This document shows positions 1,822 through 11,514 of a DNA stretch of 35,519 nucleotides, piece after piece. The DNA comes from Spirulina subsalsa FACHB-351 (lineage in GTDB: Bacteria; Cyanobacteriota; Cyanobacteriia; Cyanobacteriales; Spirulinaceae). The translations under genes and the position numbers were made by a program. The DNA lies in the NCBI RefSeq assembly GCF_026130165.1, contig NZ_JAIHOM010000050.1:1-35519 (forward strand), given 5' to 3'. A model generated the notes under the pieces. That model ran no database searches, was not told the origin of the DNA, and was given only the letters and a program-made list of their open reading frames with translations. Position 1 is the stretch's first letter. Every line of letters begins with the position of its first letter.

Positions 1822-3081
1822 ATGGACTATAAACAAGAATTAATTACAACGATTCATGATTTTGGCTGTGATCTAGAAGCTTTGGAACAGCGTTTAATCC
1901 AACTGAGCGAAGAATCACCAACAGCTATCATCATCCCGGCTTTGTACCAAGAGCTTGAACGTCCTGCCCTGAAACAGATTCGGGATCATCTCACCACTTG
2001 TTCTTTTGTCAAAACCATTGTTGTTTGCCTCTATGCAGAAACTTTAGAACAATATATCAATACGGTTAATTTTTTTGAACCCTTGCCTCAAAAGGTGAGA
2101 ATTCTTTGGGAGAATGGTCCGAGAGTGATGGCCGTTTTAGAGGACTTGCGCGATCGCGGCTTAGATTTAGTCGATCATTTTGGCAAAGGAATTGCCGTCT
2201 GGCTAGGCTTAGGGGTGGCTTCCCTCGAAGCAGAAGCGATCGCCCTCCATGATGCCGATATCATCACCTACAATCGCTCTTACCCCCTCAAACTCCTCTA
2301 TCCCCTCCTAGAAAAAGAATTTGGCCTCGCCTTCAACAAAGCCTATTATGCCCGCATTGGCGGCAATCCCCCCACCTTCAACGGTCGCGTCGTGCGTTTG
2401 TTCGTTGCTCCCGTCCTCCGCGCCCTCAGTGACTTATTCGGAGAACGGAACTATCTACATTACCTTAACTCCTTTCGTTACCCCCTCTCCGGAGAATTTG
2501 CCCTCACCCGTGACTTAGCCCTCACCACCCGCATTCCCGCCACTTGGGGCTTAGAAATCGGCTTACTCGCCGAAGTGTACCGCAACGTTGCCCATAAACG
2601 TATCGCCCAGATTGATCTTGGCGTATTTGACCACAAACACCAAAAACTGGGCAATCATAGTCAGGAAGGCCTACAAAAAATGTGTCGGGATATCTTGCGC
2701 TCCCTCCTACGCACCTTAACGGAAACCGAACAAGTGATCATCACCTCCGATCATATCCGAGCCTTGCGCGTCAAATTCCGCCGGGAAGCCCAAGATTTGA
2801 CCCGTCAATACTATGTGGACGCTCGCTTTAACGGTTTAATCTATGATCGTCATCCAGAAGAAGTCACTATAGAAGTGTTTGAACAAGTGATTGCTCAAGC
2901 TGGAAAAGAGTACGAAAACGATCCAGCCGGGGATCAAATCCCCGACTGGACTAGAGCTTTAGCCGTTATGTCAGACTTGCGAGAACGCCTATTAACTTGT
3001 TGTTTAGAAGATGTAGCCGAACATACCGGACAGGTGTTAATTCATCCCCAAGTCGATCCAAATTTTAAGCGTAGTGCTTAA
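1822..3081 (+). CDS. gpgS: Glucosyl-3-phosphoglycerate synthase (GT81-like)
   Basis: Predicted cytosolic glycosyltransferase transferring glucose from an NDP-glucose to 3-phosphoglycerate, the first step to the compatible solute glucosylglycerate. The GT-A-type N-half has IIIPALYQELERPAL (about 36-50), a GKG at 121-123 and the metal-binding DAD (144-146) within ALHDADI. Further family-like blocks are FNGRVVRLFVAPVLRAL, YPLSGEFAL, WGLEIGLLAEVYRN and DLGVFDHKHQ; the last carries the expected C-terminal acidic and His active-site residues. At 419 aa it is near the usual cyanobacterial length. The gene converges on the next minus-strand gene with only 15 bp between stops. No phosphatase (gpgP) partner is in the window. 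The family assignment rests on recalled motifs; the exact sugar nucleotide is not visible. Confidence 0.85.
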   Translation: MDYKQELITTIHDFGCDLEALEQRLIQLSEESPTAIIIPALYQELERPALKQIRDHLTTCSFVKTIVVCLYAETLEQYINTVNFFEPLPQKVRILWENGPRVMAVLEDLRDRGLDLVDHFGKGIAVWLGLGVASLEAEAIALHDADIITYNRSYPLKLLYPLLEKEFGLAFNKAYYARIGGNPPTFNGRVVRLFVAPVLRALSDLFGERNYLHYLNSFRYPLSGEFALTRDLALTTRIPATWGLEIGLLAEVYRNVAHKRIAQIDLGVFDHKHQKLGNHSQEGLQKMCRDILRSLLRTLTETEQVIITSDHIRALRVKFRREAQDLTRQYYVDARFNGLIYDRHPEEVTIEVFEQVIAQAGKEYENDPAGDQIPDWTRALAVMSDLRERLLTCCLEDVAEHTGQVLIHPQVDPNFKRSA

Positions 3082-3096
3082 GCGTTGATTCATAGA

Positions 3097-4008
3097 CTAA
3101 TCTTCTCTCAATTCAGCCTGATCTCGCCGAATTTCTAAATAACGGTGAATATATTCCGTTGTGATCCCATGTAACATCAAATTCCGTGCGGCTTGAAAGG
3201 GACTATTGGGCGCGAGAGGATGGCGATTGCTAATCACATGATTCCAACTGCTATCGCCCGTAATTTGGGTAAAGTATAGCCCAAAATTTTCATCAAATTG
3301 TAACGACAAAACCGCCCGTTCAAATTCATCACTGGTCAAACAGAGGGAGTAAAAGACTTTAAATAACTCAATGGCAGATTCTAAATCTAAAATCCGTAAC
3401 CAGCGCCATTTTTTAAAGTTCATCTCCACGGATACCGGACGAATACTTTTAAAATTAATCCCCCGTTGCTTCAGTTTAGCTTGCCAGTGGGGATTTTCTT
3501 GTTGCGCTCGATGATAGTCATAGACAAAATTATACAAAATCAAATCATGTTCAAGGAACACATTATGGGCAAGGTCATCCACTTTTTGGGGATATAAATT
3601 AGACTTTTCTAGATAAGGATTCGGACCATTATCTATGAGAAAATTGACGATATTAGACCCTAAGCTAATATGACGGACGATTAAATAACAAGCTTCTGGT
3701 GAGACAAAATATTTCAGGAAAAAAGTCGCTGATTGGTGCATAAATCCATAAAAATGGAACTGAAAGGGCAACAACCGTTTAACGGTCATAATGACGGCTA
3801 AACAGAGATTAGCTGTGATTTTTATGGGGATTAGTAAATAATTGCGCGTCCAGTTTTGCAAGTCGCAAATCATGTACTGTTTCGCCACGGGATCAACGGG
3901 GATGGCTTGGTCTAAATAAAGCACCTGCCAAGTGTTTGGATTTCGGCGATTATAGGGGAAAAAAGCAGGATCTAAAGGGGTGAGAGATTCAGCCTCATTC
4001 TGGGTCAT
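3097..4008 (-). CDS. Unknown protein coupled to the KAS III-oxidase fusion (303 aa)
   Basis: Not recognised as a named family. It starts 1 nt after the stop of the upstream ketoacyl-synthase fusion (TAA-A-ATG on the minus strand), so it is almost certainly co-transcribed and translationally coupled. There is no signal peptide. A hydrophobic stretch at about 57-80 could be one membrane helix or a buried helix. Conserved-looking His and acidic residues cluster at H91, E105, H113 and in the HNVFLEHD segment (H148, E153, H154, D155), a pattern that could bind metal, though this is speculation. Coupling suggests it shares a pathway with the fusion protein, for example as a substrate-handling partner or second oxidative enzyme. 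Confidence 0.8.
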   Translation of the reverse strand: MTQNEAESLTPLDPAFFPYNRRNPNTWQVLYLDQAIPVDPVAKQYMICDLQNWTRNYLLIPIKITANLCLAVIMTVKRLLPFQFHFYGFMHQSATFFLKYFVSPEACYLIVRHISLGSNIVNFLIDNGPNPYLEKSNLYPQKVDDLAHNVFLEHDLILYNFVYDYHRAQQENPHWQAKLKQRGINFKSIRPVSVEMNFKKWRWLRILDLESAIELFKVFYSLCLTSDEFERAVLSLQFDENFGLYFTQITGDSSWNHVISNRHPLAPNSPFQAARNLMLHGITTEYIHRYLEIRRDQAELRED

Positions 4009-4009
4009 T

Positions 4010-5881
4010 TTAGCGCATCTCCTCTAGTTGCAATTGATATAAACGGGCTGTAACGCGGGCAGTATTAACGATTTTTTGCGCCATTTCTGCGGTTAACCAA
4101 TCGGCGTTTAAAATTGCTTCGAGTTTGCCGAGATGGGACTCATCATTTTCCCCATGATAGGCTAAAAAAGAAACTTGATCATCGGTTAACTTGAGGGTTG
4201 CTTTAATCTGTTTTGCCCACTTTCCGGCTAAACGATTACCTAGCCCTTCAATGATGAACATACTGCCTAACAAATCGAGGGGATTTTCTTGGGATGCTTG
4301 ATGAAAAATAAAGGCAGAAAGGGCTTGAGAACCGATATTTTTGGGGGAATTGACTATTTCGGATAACTCTCCCCCGACACTCACATAATTCCGCTCTAAC
4401 ATCTGATAGTCGCGGTGTTCGTCTTGGGCATGACCGATAAAGAGCGATCGCAACCGAAAATCTAGCATATTCGAGGCCGCCCGTGCAATCCACCTTGCCC
4501 CTTCCACCACTTGCGGCCGCAAATTCCGCAAAAGCAGTTTATAATCCTCTCGGGTGAAATCTCCGCGCTCTAATTTACGAATCAGGGACACCCCATGCAG
4601 TTGTTGTTCAAAGTCTAACCAAACTAAGGTTAATTGTCGCAATAAATCCGCCGCAACTGAGTTTTTTACAGCCTCATTTTCCCGGTTTAATCTTAGCTGA
4701 GGTGCATTAACAACAGCTTGCTTTTCCCCCTCCCTAATCCCAGAGAGTGCATTTCGTTCAACTACCGTGAGCATCATATAAGCCGTAGTGTAGCGCCCAC
4801 TTTCCGGCACAAAACAAAAGATTTTTTCTCCCGGTTGTAATTTGCCAGAGTGAAATAATTCCTCTAACATTAAATAAATAGAAGCACACCCAGTATTTCC
4901 CCTTGTATATAGGTTAGTAAACCATTTTTCTTCGGGAATCATACAGTTGGCTTTTTCCAGAAAATCTACAATTTTACTGCGGAAAAAATGAGAGGAGTAA
5001 TGGCACAACAACCAGTCAATTTCTTCCGGTTTAACTCGACCTGCTTCAATGAGTTTTAACCACCCCGTCACCCCTAGTTTAATCACTTCATCTAAACGGC
5101 GAATATCTTGCCTTAAATGAAATGCACCCTCTTGAACGGCTTCTGCATAGGAGGGATAATCTAACCAGCTTTTTTGAGCGCTTTCATTAGCTGTTCCCCC
5201 ATACATACAAACGGGATAATGGTGAGCATGGGAGATTAATTCAATCCAATCCACTCGTAAGCTAATTTGTTCAGAAGCGGGGGTATTTTGAATGACAAAT
5301 GCACCCGCTCCATCCGACAGCATCCATCGCAAAAACTCTGTATCAAAAGCAACTTTTTCACCATTTTTATAGCGTTGGTCTGCTTCAAAATGACCCGATT
5401 TAAACAAGCGAGACGCGAGTTCTGAAGCGACGGCAATAGTATTTCGTCGCTTGCCTAATTGGACTTGGGAACTCGCATAATTTAAGGCCGCTACTCCTGC
5501 ACAACATACCCCTTGTAGGGAAATAGCTTCCAGGGGGGAAAATTCGGTTAATTCCCCATGTACCATGCTAGCAAAACCGGGAACCGTTAAATCGGGTAAA
5601 GTAGTGCTACAGGCTAATAAATCAATGGCATGGGGTTCAAGATTGAGGTAGGATAAGGCATCTCGCACCGCAAAAGCGGCCATTTCACTATTTTGATAGC
5701 GGGTTTTTTGTTGCAGATCAATGGCATAATAGCGTTGTTGAATGCCGTTGCTCTTGAGGATACGGTGACGGACTTTAGAAGCGCGATCGCCAATTCTCCC
5801 CAGATAGCTTTCCATCTCATCATTGCCAATGGGTTCCCCCGGCAGAAATTTGCCAATACTGGTAATATATGCTGATTCCAT
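4010..5881 (-). CDS. Ketoacyl-ACP synthase III fused to heme-oxygenase-like di-iron oxidase
   Basis: Two enzyme modules in one 623-aa chain. Residues 1 to about 375 are a thiolase-fold KAS III: the catalytic triad is complete, with Cys127 in GVCCAG, His294 in LLCHYSSHF and Asn329 in RGNTGCAS. Residues about 405-623 are an all-helical heme-oxygenase-like domain of the iron-containing redox enzyme type. Candidate metal ligands are E460, the HAQDEH cluster (H484, E488, H489), E545 in FIIEG, and H576/D580/H583 forming HxxxDxxH. Such domains use O2 to oxidise fatty acids, amino acids or related substrates. The fusion suggests that an acyl product made or held by the KAS domain is oxidised in place. 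Ordinary FabH is about 330 aa with no C-terminal domain, so housekeeping FabH is unlikely. The start is the ATG at 5881; no strong ribosome site is seen. It leads the operon with the 303-aa unknown. Confidence 0.85.
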   Translation of the reverse strand: MESAYITSIGKFLPGEPIGNDEMESYLGRIGDRASKVRHRILKSNGIQQRYYAIDLQQKTRYQNSEMAAFAVRDALSYLNLEPHAIDLLACSTTLPDLTVPGFASMVHGELTEFSPLEAISLQGVCCAGVAALNYASSQVQLGKRRNTIAVASELASRLFKSGHFEADQRYKNGEKVAFDTEFLRWMLSDGAGAFVIQNTPASEQISLRVDWIELISHAHHYPVCMYGGTANESAQKSWLDYPSYAEAVQEGAFHLRQDIRRLDEVIKLGVTGWLKLIEAGRVKPEEIDWLLCHYSSHFFRSKIVDFLEKANCMIPEEKWFTNLYTRGNTGCASIYLMLEELFHSGKLQPGEKIFCFVPESGRYTTAYMMLTVVERNALSGIREGEKQAVVNAPQLRLNRENEAVKNSVAADLLRQLTLVWLDFEQQLHGVSLIRKLERGDFTREDYKLLLRNLRPQVVEGARWIARAASNMLDFRLRSLFIGHAQDEHRDYQMLERNYVSVGGELSEIVNSPKNIGSQALSAFIFHQASQENPLDLLGSMFIIEGLGNRLAGKWAKQIKATLKLTDDQVSFLAYHGENDESHLGKLEAILNADWLTAEMAQKIVNTARVTARLYQLQLEEMR

Positions 5882-7299: not shown

Positions 7300-9612
7300 A
7301 TGGTTATTAGTTCCCTAAAAGTCCAAACTCATAATTTCGTTAATTTAACCGAAGAACCCATTCATTTGATTAGCCAAATACAACCTCACGGGTTAGTTTT
7401 TGTGCTGAGTGAACCAGAACTTAAAATTGTGCAGGTCAGTAGTAATACCCGAGCGATTTTGGAGGTTTCACCGGATCAGGTACTGAACAAAAATCTGGAA
7501 GATGTTCTAGATTCAGTGCAAATAGAACCCTTACAAAAAGGACTAGCTGAAGATAACTTTGATTGGGTTAATCCTAGCAAAGTTTGGGCGAGGACAAAGG
7601 GCGATGAGTATATGGTGTTTGATGCTGTCTTTCACCGCAATCCTGAAGGGTATTTAATTCTTGAACTTGAACCTGCAATTTCTCAGGAAAATATTCCTTT
7701 TTTGAGTTTTTATCACTTGGCTAAAACCTCAATTTCTCAACTGGAAAAAACAAGCACACTTGACGAATTTTGTCAAATTATTGTGCAGGAAGTGCGCAAA
7801 ATGACCGACTTTGATCGGGTGATGTTGTATAAATTTGAGGAAGACGGTCATGGGGTAGTGATTGCAGAAGATAAGATCCCAGAGTTAGAGCCTTACTTAG
7901 GCTTGCATTATCCCGAGTCAGATATTCCCAAACAAGCGCGCAAGTTATTTGCTTCTAATGTGATTCGCCAGATCCCCGATGCTGGCACAACTCCCGTCTC
8001 TTTAGTGCCGCGCCTGCATCCGGTGAGCGATCGCCCCATTGACCTCACCTACTCCATTTTGCGCAGTCCCTCCACTTGTCACCTCGAATATCTGCACAAC
8101 ATGGGAGTTGGGGCATCCCTCACCATTTCCTTAATTCAAGACGGGGAACTGTGGGGCTTAATCGCCTGTCACCACCGCACCCCTAAATTCATCTCCTACG
8201 AACTGCGCAAAGCCTGCGAATTCCTCGGCCATGTGATCTTTGCCGAAATTTCCGCCCGGGAAGAAACCGCCGATCAAGACTATCGCCTAAAACTGGCCTC
8301 CATTCAAACCCGTCTCATCGACTACATGGGACAAGACGACAACTTTATTGAAGGATTAGTCAAACATCAACCCAATCTATTAGACCTCACCAACGCCCAA
8401 GGCGCTGCTATTTGTTTAAGTGGACAATATATTACCCTCGGCAATACCCCCAACACCGAAGAACTCAACTTTTTGCTGCAATGGTTGAGTAAAAACATCG
8501 AAGATCGGGAAATCTTCTGCACCGACTCCCTGGCCCGGTGGTACTCCGACGCAGAAACCTTTAAAGATGTCGGCAGTGGATTATTAGCCATTCCCATTTC
8601 CAAACAGAATTATGTGCTGTGGTTTCGCCCCGAAGTCATTCAAACCGTCAACTGGGGGGGAGATCCCGGCAATGCCTACGAAACCATCCAAGAAGCGGAT
8701 ACCGTGAAACTATCCCCCCGGAAATCCTTTGAACTGTGGAAAGAAACCGTCCGTCTGAAATCCCTGCCGTGGCAAGGGGTAGAAGTAAAGGCTGCCCTAG
8801 GACTACGCAAAGCCATTGTCAACATTGTTCTGCGTCAGGCCGATGAATTAGCCCAACTCGCCCAAGATTTAGAACGCTCTAACGCCGAATTGCGGAAATT
8901 CGCCTATGTGGCCTCCCATGACCTGCAAGAACCTTTGAACCAAGTGGCGAATTATGTCCAATTGTTGGCCCTGCGCTATAACCAACAATTAGATAAAGAT
9001 GCCCACGAATTCATTGATTTTGCCGTGGAAGGGGTGAGTTTAATGCAGACCCTGATTGATGATGTCTTGGCCTATTCCCGGGTTGATCTGAAGGGAATTG
9101 AATTTGAACTCACCGAGGTGGAAGTTGCTTTAAAACGGGCGTTAGGCAACCTACGGGGTCGCATTAGTGATAATCAAGCGACCATCACCTACGACCCCTT
9201 ACCGACGGTGACGGCTGATGGGACGCAATTAATGCAGTTATTCCAGAATCTGATTGTCAATGCGATTAAATTCCGCAGCGCGGCCCCTCCGGTGATTCAT
9301 ATTGGCGCACACCGCTTAGAGGAGGAATGGCTGTTTTCCGTGGAGGATAATGGCATGGGGTTAGATCCCCAATTTGCCGAACGGATTTTTGTGATTTTCC
9401 AGCGTCTTCATGCTCGGGATGAGTACCCCGGAACAGGTATGGGACTAGCGATATGTAAAAAAATTATCGAATGTCACCGCGGCCGGATTTGGGTAGAATC
9501 GGAGCTGGGACAGGGCGCAACATTCTATTTTACGATTCCCATAGGAGGACGTGATCGTGAACGACGACGCAAAGGGCGGAATCTGCAAAACAATATTTTT
9601 AGTCGAAGATAA
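7300..9612 (+). CDS. cph1: Cph1-type cyanobacterial phytochrome histidine kinase
   Basis: Red/far-red photoreceptor kinase of 770 aa with PAS (about 20-125), GAF (about 150-320), PHY (about 330-510), HisKA (about 530-595) and HATPase (about 640-750). The bilin-attachment Cys260 with His261 (STCHLEYL) matches the Cph1 position, so a phycocyanobilin-type chromophore is expected. Other key residues are present: Y177, D208 in YPESDIP, H291, the WGGDP tongue start (452-456) and PRKSF (473-477). The phospho-acceptor is H540 (ASHDLQEPLN); the N box (FQNLIVNAIKFR) and the DNGMG and GTGMGLAI boxes are intact, so kinase activity is expected. The C-terminus carries a basic tail (GRDRERRRKGRN) beyond the catalytic domain, read through the start of rcp1. 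It forms an operon with rcp1. Confidence 0.97.
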   Translation: MVISSLKVQTHNFVNLTEEPIHLISQIQPHGLVFVLSEPELKIVQVSSNTRAILEVSPDQVLNKNLEDVLDSVQIEPLQKGLAEDNFDWVNPSKVWARTKGDEYMVFDAVFHRNPEGYLILELEPAISQENIPFLSFYHLAKTSISQLEKTSTLDEFCQIIVQEVRKMTDFDRVMLYKFEEDGHGVVIAEDKIPELEPYLGLHYPESDIPKQARKLFASNVIRQIPDAGTTPVSLVPRLHPVSDRPIDLTYSILRSPSTCHLEYLHNMGVGASLTISLIQDGELWGLIACHHRTPKFISYELRKACEFLGHVIFAEISAREETADQDYRLKLASIQTRLIDYMGQDDNFIEGLVKHQPNLLDLTNAQGAAICLSGQYITLGNTPNTEELNFLLQWLSKNIEDREIFCTDSLARWYSDAETFKDVGSGLLAIPISKQNYVLWFRPEVIQTVNWGGDPGNAYETIQEADTVKLSPRKSFELWKETVRLKSLPWQGVEVKAALGLRKAIVNIVLRQADELAQLAQDLERSNAELRKFAYVASHDLQEPLNQVANYVQLLALRYNQQLDKDAHEFIDFAVEGVSLMQTLIDDVLAYSRVDLKGIEFELTEVEVALKRALGNLRGRISDNQATITYDPLPTVTADGTQLMQLFQNLIVNAIKFRSAAPPVIHIGAHRLEEEWLFSVEDNGMGLDPQFAERIFVIFQRLHARDEYPGTGMGLAICKKIIECHRGRIWVESELGQGATFYFTIPIGGRDRERRRKGRNLQNNIFSRR
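9543..9548 (+). promoter_or_regulatory. Ribosome binding site of rcp1 inside cph1
   Basis: A full AGGAGG Shine-Dalgarno sequence lies within the coding sequence of cph1. It decides between two in-frame GTG starts (9551 and 9557) in favour of 9557. Confidence 0.7.
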
Positions 9613-10009
9613 TCGGGCAGATATTCGTTTAATCCAAGAAGCATTAAAACATAGCACGATTCCCCATGAAGTGATTACGGTGCGCAATGGGATGGACGCA
9701 ATGGCCTATTTGCGACAAGAGGGGGACTATGTAGATTCCCCCCGACCGGATTTAATTCTCTTGGATCTGAATTTACCGCGTAAGGATGGGCGGGAAGTGT
9801 TGGCGGAAATCAAGTCCGATTCTGATTTGAAGCGGATTCCGGTGGTCGTATTGACGACTTCTCATAATGAAGATGATATTGCTCAGAGTTATGAGTTGCA
9901 CGTGAACTGTTATATTACCAAGTCTCGCAACTTGAACGAGTTATTTGCAATTGTGAAGGGAATTGAGGATTTTTGGTTAAAAACTGTAACACTTCCTTCA
10001 GAAAGTTAA
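9557..10009 (+). CDS. rcp1: Phytochrome response regulator Rcp1
   Basis: Single-domain CheY-like receiver (150 aa) that accepts phosphate from the cognate phytochrome. The acidic pocket is E17/D18, the phospho-acceptor is D70 in LILLDLNLPRKDG, and T100 and K122 complete the site. The closing helix GIEDFW and TLPS tail resemble Rcp1. There is no output domain. Start choice: AGGAGG at 9543-9548 lies 8 nt before the GTG at 9557 but only 2 nt before the in-frame GTG at 9551, so 9557 is preferred. The gene overlaps the end of cph1 by 56 nt in another frame, implying translational coupling. Confidence 0.93.
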   Translation: MNDDAKGGICKTIFLVEDNRADIRLIQEALKHSTIPHEVITVRNGMDAMAYLRQEGDYVDSPRPDLILLDLNLPRKDGREVLAEIKSDSDLKRIPVVVLTTSHNEDDIAQSYELHVNCYITKSRNLNELFAIVKGIEDFWLKTVTLPSES

Positions 10010-10040
10010 GCTTAAATGCTCTTGACTTTTAAGCCGTTTT
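10010..10040 (+). terminator. Possible terminator of cph1-rcp1
   Basis: GCTTAAA (10010-10016) and TTTAAGC (10028-10034) form a 7-bp AT-rich stem followed by CGTTTT, directly after the rcp1 stop. The stem is weak, so the call is tentative. Further down, CCCCCA/TGGGGG at 10073-10091 forms a second small hairpin without a T-run. The remaining bases up to 10314 show nothing else. Confidence 0.4.
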
Positions 10041-10314
10041 AACTAATTTTTTGGAAGATTTTGCCCTTACCTCCCCCAAACAAACTGGGGGTATGATTCC
10101 TGATCAACCCTACCCAAAACCCCTCGCCGTTAATGAGTCAGAGTGAATCTTAAAGTGTGAAATTATCTCAAAAAAACAACCAACACCAGACGATCTTTCA
10201 AGTTGATTTTATAATAGAGATTGAAAAAAATCTTGATCTGTGATTGAAAAATCTGGAGGTGCCGCCCGAGGTTTAGCAAACATCATTAAGGAGAAATTGC
10301 GCCCCCTAAACATT

Positions 10315-11514
10315 ATGCCAGCCAGTTCCCTGAACATCTTACTGATTGAGGACAACTTGGCGGAAGCCAGATTGTTGCGTGAGCTTCTCAATGACTCTCA
10401 CTCGGTTTCCTGTCGTCTGGTTCATGTCAAGCGATTGAAGGAGGCTTTGATTAAGCTGGGTGACACGACCTTTGATGTCATTTTACTGGATTTAACGCTG
10501 CCGGATAGTAATGGTTTGTTGTCCCTGTCTCCCTTGGCGGTTTGCGCCCCCAGTGTGCCGATTGTGGTGTTGACCAATACAAACGATTCAGAGTTAGCGC
10601 GGGAGGCGATGCGTCGGGGGGCGCAGGATTATTTAGTCAAGCGTCAGGTGAATAATACGGAGACGTTAGTCCGAGCGTTGATCTATGCGGTGGAACGAAA
10701 ACAGGCGCTGGAGTCTTTGCGGGAGAGTCATGAGGCGCTGGAAAATCAGATTGAGGAGAAGGTGGCGGAGTTATTGCAAGCGCAACAACAGAATCAGTTA
10801 AAGTCTGAGTTTGTGTCGATGTTGTCTCATGATTTCCGCAATCCGTTGAATACTATTTTGTTGTCGGCTGGGTTGTTACAGGATAATCAAGATCGGTTGA
10901 CGGAGGATAAGAAAATTCGCTTGTTCCAACAGATTCGGCTGGCGAGTAAGAGTATGGCGCAGTTGTTGGATGAGGTGCTGTTAATTGGTAAGGCGGAGAT
11001 GGATCAGTTGCCTTGTGAGTTGTCTCCGTTGTCGCTAGAGTCGTTTTGCCGGGGTTTGGTGGAGGAGTTGGAGGGGAGTATGGTGGAGGGGAAACGAGTG
11101 TGCTTTTCTTGGCAGGGGGGCTATTCTGAAGGGTTATGGGATAAGCGGTTATTGCGGCATATTTTGGAAAACTTGCTGTCGAATGCGCTTAAGTATTCTC
11201 CTGAAGAGACGATAGTGGAGTTTGAGGTGGAGGTGGGGGAGGAATCGGTTTTGTTTGAAGTGCGCGATCGCGGTATTGGCATCACTTGGGAAGACCAGAA
11301 GAAGTTATTTCAACCCTTCCATCGGGGTCGGAATGTGGGACATATTACGGGAACGGGTTTGGGTTTAGCCATTGCGAAACATTGCGCCCAGGCCCACGGG
11401 GGAATGATTCGGGTGGAAAGTCAAGTCGGGGTAGGAACTACGTTTCGGGTTGAGTTACCCCTGGTTGTCGATGACTTGCACGGTAATGCGACCGCGAGCG
11501 AGTTGCACAGTTAG
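10315..11514 (+). CDS. Receiver-histidine kinase protein (399 aa)
   Basis: An N-terminal receiver domain (1 to about 125; phospho-acceptor D59 in ILLDLTLPDSNG, K109) is joined by a Glu/Gln-rich coiled coil (about 128-165) to a HisKA domain (H172 in MLSHDFRNPLN) and a HATPase domain (N box HILENLLSNALKY, DRGIG, GTGLGLAI). There is no membrane segment. The protein is probably a cytosolic relay kinase driven by phosphorylation of its own receiver. The ATG at 10315 gives the usual receiver start (MPASSLNILLIEDN); an in-frame GTG at 10240 would add 25 residues without family support or a good ribosome site, and a TTG at 10297 has AAGGAG only 3 nt upstream. It lies about 300 bp behind rcp1, which hints at a link to phytochrome signalling. 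Its 3' end overlaps convergent xseA by 60 nt. Confidence 0.88.
   Translation: MPASSLNILLIEDNLAEARLLRELLNDSHSVSCRLVHVKRLKEALIKLGDTTFDVILLDLTLPDSNGLLSLSPLAVCAPSVPIVVLTNTNDSELAREAMRRGAQDYLVKRQVNNTETLVRALIYAVERKQALESLRESHEALENQIEEKVAELLQAQQQNQLKSEFVSMLSHDFRNPLNTILLSAGLLQDNQDRLTEDKKIRLFQQIRLASKSMAQLLDEVLLIGKAEMDQLPCELSPLSLESFCRGLVEELEGSMVEGKRVCFSWQGGYSEGLWDKRLLRHILENLLSNALKYSPEETIVEFEVEVGEESVLFEVRDRGIGITWEDQKKLFQPFHRGRNVGHITGTGLGLAIAKHCAQAHGGMIRVESQVGVGTTFRVELPLVVDDLHGNATASELHS

What the first reader, a model, noticed from the sequence alone, without database searches (positions are those of the whole stretch)
3097..5881. KAS III-di-iron oxidase fusion coupled to an unknown protein
Seen: a complete Cys-His-Asn KAS III triad (C127, H294, N329) followed in the same chain by a heme-oxygenase-like domain with an apparently complete metal site (E460, H484/E488/H489, E545, H576xxxD580xxH583), and a 303-aa unknown gene starting 1 nt after its stop. 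Known: heme-oxygenase-like di-iron oxidases such as UndA, CADD and BesC carry out unusual C-C or C-H cleavages, and KAS III enzymes join or transfer acyl groups. Inference: the unit makes an oxidised acyl-derived metabolite (for example an alkene, aldehyde or hydroxylated lipid), with the KAS domain loading or building the substrate. I do not recognise this pair as a described pathway.
Basis: partly seen in the sequence, partly recalled or inferred. Interest (0 to 1): 0.68.

Follow-up and report, generated by a model that had tools for sequence, protein, structure and literature searches.

The report
Ring-forming synthase fused to iron-type oxidase
Bacteria from several distant groups share a gene pair in which an enzyme that probably joins two fatty-acid chains into a ring is fused to, or sits beside, an iron-type oxidase and is nearly always accompanied by one protein of unknown function, which points to a shared and apparently undescribed lipid pathway.

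Summary
The fusion and its neighbour are real. The N-terminal domain is not a generic FabH: it is a close sister of the StlD/DarB ketosynthases, which make 2,5-dialkylcyclohexane-1,3-diones (StlD structural Z 53.5, next fold 38.3). The C-terminal domain is a PF14518 haem-oxygenase-like oxidase. The neighbour is PF22523 (DUF6999), with no solved relative found. Of 80 related loci, 77 carry DUF6999 downstream on the same strand; two of the other three have it elsewhere in the genome. Of 244 cyanobacterial genomes the same seven have DUF6999 and an intact fusion; an eighth has a fusion with stops and no DUF6999. A Pseudoalteromonas plasmid and three further genomes encode ketosynthase, oxidase and DUF6999 as separate neighbouring genes, so the parts very likely act together. 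Some lineages add a fatty-acid hydroxylase, a desaturase, a histidine-rich membrane protein or a Coq4-like protein. My reading: the ketosynthase closes a 4-carboxy-dialkylcyclohexanedione, the oxidase domain oxidises it with O2, and DUF6999 is a near-obligatory partner, giving an oxygenated ring lipid. Substrate, product and metal are inferred. The catalytic cysteine is C126, not C127, and the first metal-ligand pair is non-canonical. Eight searches of open-licence papers found no description.

The parts
4010..5881 (-). KS-HDO fusion gene, 623 aa
   Evidence: ORF and translation; Pfam; relatives; AF2 model pLDDT 88.8
4754..5881 (-). Ketosynthase domain, about residues 1-376; C126 (codon 5504-5506), H294, N329
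   Evidence: StlD match over residues 2-374, Z 53.5; triad 81 of 81
4661..4753 (-). Linker, about residues 377-407, low-confidence in the model
   Evidence: pLDDT below 50 at 378-406
4013..4660 (-). Haem-oxygenase-like oxidase (HDO) domain, residues 408-623; conserved H484, E488, D491, E545, H576, D580, H583
   Evidence: PF14518; helices; conservation 54 of 54 fused and split domains
4019..4025 (-). AGAGGAG, a ribosome-binding-like sequence for the DUF6999 gene inside the end of the fusion gene, ten bases before its ATG
   Evidence: read from the sequence
3097..4008 (-). DUF6999 gene (PF22523), 303 aa
   Evidence: ORF; PF22523 E 9.1e-103; AF2 model all-helical, pLDDT 90.8

Best explanation
The unit is the core of an O2-dependent ring-lipid pathway. 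Step 1 (inferred from the close relation to StlD/DarB): the ketosynthase domain joins two activated acyl chains, a beta-ketoacyl and a 2-enoyl thioester from fatty-acid synthesis, into a 4-carboxy-2,5-dialkylcyclohexane-1,3-dione. Step 2 (inferred): the tethered haem-oxygenase-like di-metal domain, rather than a DarA-type flavoprotein, oxidises that ring with O2, most likely by oxidative loss of the 4-carboxyl or by oxygenation with aromatisation. Step 3 (dependence shown by genomics, role inferred): DUF6999, all-helical and perhaps membrane-associated, is a near-obligatory partner that binds, releases or further processes the lipid. In some lineages a membrane hydroxylase or desaturase, a histidine-rich membrane protein or a Coq4-like protein decorates it. 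Shown: domain identities, conserved residues, the constant partnership, fused and split forms. Not shown: any substrate, product or metal.
For: KS: StlD/DarB model 447.6 bits against FabH 78.7; StlD Z 53.5 against 38.3 for the next fold; C126/H294/N329 81 of 81; 63 positions shared with four DarB/StlD sequences and two consistent differences. DarB reported to make 4-carboxy-2,5-dialkylcyclohexane-1,3-diones (PMC5515871, passage). HDO: PF14518; seven candidate ligands conserved in 54 of 54 fused and split domains. Partnership: DUF6999 downstream in 77 of 80 loci, the same 7 of 244 cyanobacterial genomes, HDO in 19 and KS in 18 of 20 genomes of the Archangium phylum with near-complete DUF6999. 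Split genes side by side. No DarA-like gene found in 120 loci, 1.30 Mb. PF04116, PF00487 or Coq4-like neighbours in part of the loci.
Against: The window protein misses the StlD/DarB cut-off by 2.4 bits, and 5 of the 6 clade members scored miss it. The tree separates the clade from StlD/DarB by a long branch, so the reaction may differ. First metal pair non-canonical. G290 has KS and DUF6999 but no HDO found; the L034 genome, a MAG, has the fusion but no DUF6999 found. The DarA query found its relative in L119 but not in the DarB locus L120, so its absence elsewhere is weak. No fold or function is known for DUF6999.
Confidence: 0.45

Rival explanations
1. The HDO domain is only an O2-dependent aromatase standing in for DarA: the unit makes ordinary 2,5-dialkylresorcinols, and DUF6999 moves or modifies them.
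For: KS close to DarB; no DarA-like gene found in 120 loci.
Against: Does not explain why DUF6999 is nearly always present, nor the Coq4-like and hydroxylase neighbours; the DarA search had a weak control.
Confidence: 0.22
2. The KS clade has changed reaction: it condenses acyl chains without ring closure (as OleA or PqsD do), and the HDO cleaves or decarboxylates the linear beta-keto product in the manner of UndA, giving a ketone, alkene or similar. This is closest to the first reader's examples.
For: Deep split from StlD/DarB; 5 of 6 clade members scored fall below the StlD/DarB cut-off; F103 and G362 differ consistently; OleA and PqsD are among the next structural matches, Z 37-38; HDOs include the decarboxylase UndA (PMC11363339, passage).
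Against: StlD match far above OleA and PqsD (Z 53.5 against 37-38); 63 shared positions with DarB/StlD, including S153-E154.
Confidence: 0.2
3. The C-terminal domain is not an oxidase: it has the fold but a mononuclear or absent metal site and serves binding or assembly.
For: Core helix 1 lacks the canonical E...H order; the fold also occurs in metal-free enzymes and in FlcD with one iron (PMC11363339, passages); G290 seems to do without HDO.
Against: H484, E488, D491, E545, H576, D580 and H583 are 54 of 54; AetD shows that ligand order may change in a working di-iron site (PMC10654658, passage).
Confidence: 0.08

Closest known systems
StlD / DarB ketosynthases (NCBIfam NF005293, NF053539; PDB 5gk0-5gk2)
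   Same: Fold (Z 53.5, 41% identity over 367-369 residues), C-H-N triad, 63 positions shared with four members
   Different: Separate clade, scores near or below the curated cut-off, joined or adjacent to an HDO and DUF6999, no DarA-like neighbour found
Haem-oxygenase-like di-metal oxidases (UndA, BesC, CADD, SznF, AetD, PolF, FlcD)
   Same: PF14518 match; E545 and H576xxxD580xxH583 fit the last four ligands of the printed E-H-E-H-(D/E)-H motif
   Different: First pair is H484xxxE488 (xxD491) in place of E...H; none of these characterised enzymes was among the two PDB sequences matched at E up to 10 (3dde, function unknown, and haem oxygenase 1xk2); here fused to a ketosynthase
Coq4 (PF05019)
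   Same: A protein of about 170 aa beside or near the pair in 11 of 52 cyanobacterial loci has a short HDxxH...E stretch that PF05019 picks up in 11 of 11; human COQ4 is reported to do the oxidative decarboxylation of a lipid-tailed ring (PMC11495197, passage)
   Different: Match below the Pfam cut-off in the member shown (13.5 of 22.9 bits; best E among members 0.0024); absent from the window's own genome and 4 more of the 7 system-positive genomes in the sample

Membership tests
StlD/DarB ketosynthase family | KAS III fold with Cys-His-Asn triad | tested here: met
   C126, H294, N329 in 81 of 81; StlD Z 53.5
StlD/DarB ketosynthase family | Curated NCBIfam score: NF005293 at least 450 bits | tested here: not met
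   447.6 for the window protein; of 6 clade members scored, 1 (L005, 459.9) reaches it; two DarB-type controls score 551.4 and 552.5. Hence filed as a sister, not a member
StlD/DarB ketosynthase family | Forms 2,5-dialkylcyclohexane-1,3-diones | not testable with these tools
   needs enzyme assay
DarA/DarB dialkylresorcinol clusters | DarA-type aromatase beside the ketosynthase | tested here: inconclusive
   no tblastn hit in 120 loci at E 1e-3; the query, a presumed DarA from L118, finds L119 but not DarB locus L120, and it has no Pfam match over cut-off
FabH (TIGR00747) | Curated score at least 292.1 bits | tested here: not met
   78.7 bits
HDO (PF14518) | Pfam gathering score 28.9 | tested here: met
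   33.6 bits; a split domain from L106 43.0, but the Pseudoalteromonas one (P0005) gave no PF14518 match
HDO (PF14518) | E-H-E-H-(D/E)-H metal motif on three core helices | tested here: inconclusive
   last four positions fit and are invariant; the first pair is H484/E488 or E488/D491, not E...H
HDO (PF14518) | Binds two metal ions, activates O2 | not testable with these tools
   no coordinates, no assay
DUF6999 (PF22523) | Pfam gathering score 27 | tested here: met
   343.5 bits

The most novel reading that the evidence does not exclude
The system makes a fatty-acid-derived, isoprenoid-free lipoquinone-like compound: the ketosynthase closes a 4-carboxy-dialkylcyclohexanedione, the HDO replaces the carboxyl by a hydroxyl in an O2-dependent oxidative decarboxylation (the logic reported for COQ4 on coenzyme Q), and DUF6999, with Coq4-like or membrane di-iron partners in some lineages, finishes a redox-active dialkyl hydroxyquinone or hydroquinone in the membrane.
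Probability: 0.12. Interest if true: 0.85.

Novelty: new variant of a known kind. Interest (0 to 1): 0.62.

Why it matters
A nearly constant three-part module (ring-forming-type ketosynthase, haem-oxygenase-like oxidase, DUF6999) occurs in at least seven phyla (Cyanobacteriota, Bacteroidota, Chlorobiota, Acidobacteriota, Myxococcota, Bacillota, Pseudomonadota), and I found no description of it. It offers a defined, testable reaction for a fast-growing oxidase family, gives DUF6999 a functional context, and predicts an unrecognised lipid or signal in common bacteria.

Tried and rejected
Generic FabH: rejected, 78.7 bits against 292.1. Fusion as replacement for FabH: the window's own assembly has no FabH match over cut-off, but 12 of 13 genomes of its family do, among them the same-genus genome G012, which carries both the fusion and a FabH 27 kb apart; an assembly gap is the likeliest cause. 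DUF6999 as a relative of the HDO domain or of the FA hydroxylase: hhalign probability 0.1 each. Fold of DUF6999: Foldseek gave nothing at E 0.001 or better in PDB or BFVD; VIA-align 2 best Z 5.1, within what unrelated helical models give; no PDB sequence at E up to 1. None of this proves a new fold. FA hydroxylase as a cyanobacterial partner: profile A4 (17 of the 20 intact non-cyanobacterial copies plus 3 myxobacterial) hits 33 of 244 genomes, 3 of them among the 7 system-positive (G000 and G072 strong, G051 weak), so no specific link there. VIA-align of the whole fusion listed only KAS-type folds, so the HDO half was not tested by structure. Promoter-like (8 against 6.8 expected) and terminator-like (5 against 3.6) sites are near expectation; no Rfam match in the window.

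Full report
What is there. On the minus strand, ORF 4010-5881 encodes 623 aa and ORF 3097-4008 encodes 303 aa, one base apart; an AGAGGAG sequence lies inside the end of the first gene, ten bases before the second start. Pfam gives PF08541 (44.1 bits) and PF14518 (33.6 bits) in the first protein, both over cut-off, and PF22523, DUF6999 (343.5 bits), in the second.

Ketosynthase half. NCBIfam's best model is the StlD/DarB family, 447.6 bits against a cut-off of 450; FabH scores 78.7 against 292.1. StlD is the best PDB sequence (E 9.2e-90). The AF2 model of the fusion (81-sequence alignment, pLDDT 88.8, pTM 0.81) matches StlD at Z 53.5 (367-369 residues, rmsd 1.5-1.6) and the next fold, AbyA1, at 38.3. 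An unrooted tree of 44 ketosynthases separates 40 rows from these systems (35 fused, 5 split; the window, 28 of the 80 loci and 11 from other records) from three DarB-type sequences and StlD, with 100/100 on both sides; L109 is a long branch. At 63 positions all four DarB/StlD rows and at least 95% of the 40 agree; at two (F103, G362) they consistently differ. Of six clade members scored, one reaches the StlD/DarB cut-off (L005 459.9; the others 372.2 to 447.6), whereas two DarB-type controls score 551.4 and 552.5. So I file it as a sister clade with most of the family's fixed residues kept, not as a member. For DarB the product is given as 4-carboxy-2,5-dialkylcyclohexane-1,3-diones (PMC5515871, passage); the primary papers, Fuchs 2013 and Mori 2016, were seen only in reference lists.

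Oxidase half. In 54 aligned domains (50 of 81 fused, 4 split) H484, E488, D491, E496, E545, H576, D580 and H583 are 54 of 54; residue 460 is E in 34 and D in 20. The motif in print is E-H-E-H-(D/E)-H over three core helices, with a seventh Glu in SznF (PMC11363339, passages and section 10). E545 and H576xxxD580xxH583 fit the last four. The first pair is different here; AetD is a precedent for a changed ligand order (PMC10654658, passage). By sequence only two PDB entries match at E up to 10: 3dde (unknown function, E 9.6e-9) with the same late motif, and haem oxygenase 1xk2 (E 0.43). Coordinates of the model were not available, so the metal geometry was not checked. HDO reactions in print include C-C cleavage, N-oxidation, desaturation and azetidine formation (PMC12614342, passages).

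The partner. One genome-collection scan found 136 relatives and kept 80 loci, 52 cyanobacterial and 28 other. In 77 of 80, DUF6999 lies downstream on the same strand; 65 of those gaps are under 100 bases, the largest 3,087. Of the other three, the genomes of L029 and L060 have DUF6999 elsewhere; that of L034, whose contig ends 158 bases after the fusion gene, has none. In 244 cyanobacterial genomes DUF6999 occurs in 7 and a full-length fusion without stops in the same 7 (in G181 as two matched pieces of one open frame); G111 has a fusion copy with two stops, matched to residue 539, and no DUF6999. Chance of identical sets is 1e-13 if genomes were independent, which they are not. In 193 genomes of Archangium's phylum, 22 match and 20 have near-complete DUF6999; HDO was seen in 19 of 20 and KS in 18 of 20 (G413's KS was not looked for, G439's contig ends, G290 has KS without HDO). 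In G351 the fusion lies 3.75 Mb from DUF6999; in G414 and G430 the two are on different contigs, so linkage cannot be told. The two genomes with only fragments of DUF6999 (G306, G384) lack the fusion. In 247 Bacteroidia 6 have DUF6999; the 5 checked have the fusion next door, and the sixth is the genome of L058. The reverse scan, for fusions without DUF6999, was done only for cyanobacteria.

Fused and split forms. On a Pseudoalteromonas plasmid KS (366 aa), HDO (226 aa) and DUF6999 are three adjacent genes, preceded by a 185-aa membrane-type protein (the HDO there gave no PF14518 match, but aligns with all conserved positions). G313, G269 and G276 have the same four genes, in G276 with DUF6999 on the other strand. 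In the 185-aa protein HExVAHxD and HAHxYL are conserved in the four copies; it has no Pfam match. Fusion in some lineages and adjacency in others argues that the parts work together.

Other partners. In 22 of 28 non-cyanobacterial loci the gene just before the fusion belongs to one cluster, of which the three members tested are PF04116 fatty-acid hydroxylases. Several myxobacterial loci carry a PF00487 desaturase next to the fusion (L110, L114, L121, L122) and some a PF04116 gene nearby (L110, L115, L121) (Pfam was run on L106, L110 and L115, the others are by likeness). In 11 of 52 cyanobacterial loci a Coq4-like protein of about 170 aa lies beside or near the pair. At strong scores (E below 1e-80) it occurs in 2 of 244 cyanobacterial genomes, both system-positive and within 1 kb; eight other genomes give short matches at E 1e-6 to 9e-4; the window's own genome gives none (chance of 2 of 7 against 0 of 237 is 7e-4). 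Its likeness to Coq4 is a short motif: PF05019 in 11 of 11 at E up to 1, best E 0.0024, and E about 0.06 to two Coq4-type PDB chains. COQ4 is reported to remove C1's carboxyl and hydroxylate it in one step (PMC11495197, passage).

DUF6999. The model is all-helical (pLDDT 90.8). Invariant columns of 76 sequences include H91, R112, H113, H154, D155, E214, D239, E240, H280 and E285. The best 19-residue hydropathy mean is 1.25 to 2.67 in 78 sequences, so membrane association is possible. No fold match stands out.

Mechanism. I commit to ring closure by the KS, O2-dependent oxidation of that ring by the HDO, and DUF6999 as near-obligatory partner. Whether the oxidation is aromatisation, oxygenation or oxidative decarboxylation is open, and no product is known.

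Literature. Searches over open-licence PMC papers showed no listing that describes this module; 'DUF6999' occurs in none of them. Subscription papers were not searched, so a description there is possible.

Noticed in passing
window 1822-3081 (+): Glucosyl-3-phosphoglycerate synthase-like protein (NF040724, 517.1 bits, below its cut-off of 700), converging on the DUF6999 gene.
   Followed up: no
whole assembly G000: No FabH match over cut-off in the window's own assembly, said to be 99.99% complete, while 12 of 13 genomes of the family have one; probably an assembly gap.
   Followed up: partly
G111:C1:5339891-5341504: Fusion gene with one TAG and one TAA, matched to residue 539 only, in a genome without DUF6999: a decaying copy that seems to have lost its partner.
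   Followed up: no
L084:12648-13202, L105:10692-11270, L106:5539-6165, L107:2958-3539: Membrane-type protein of about 185-208 aa with conserved histidine stretches and no Pfam match over cut-off, next to split KS genes; possibly an unrecognised membrane metal oxidase.
   Followed up: partly
L118:7004-9190, L119:5959-8143: DarB-type ketosynthase beside a flavodoxin-like protein in two cyanobacterial genomes of the window's order, with a glycosyltransferase-like neighbour; reminiscent (from memory) of bartoloside clusters.
   Followed up: no
window 7300-11514 (+): Phytochrome-like sensor kinase followed by response-regulator-type proteins, judged from the translations only.
   Followed up: no
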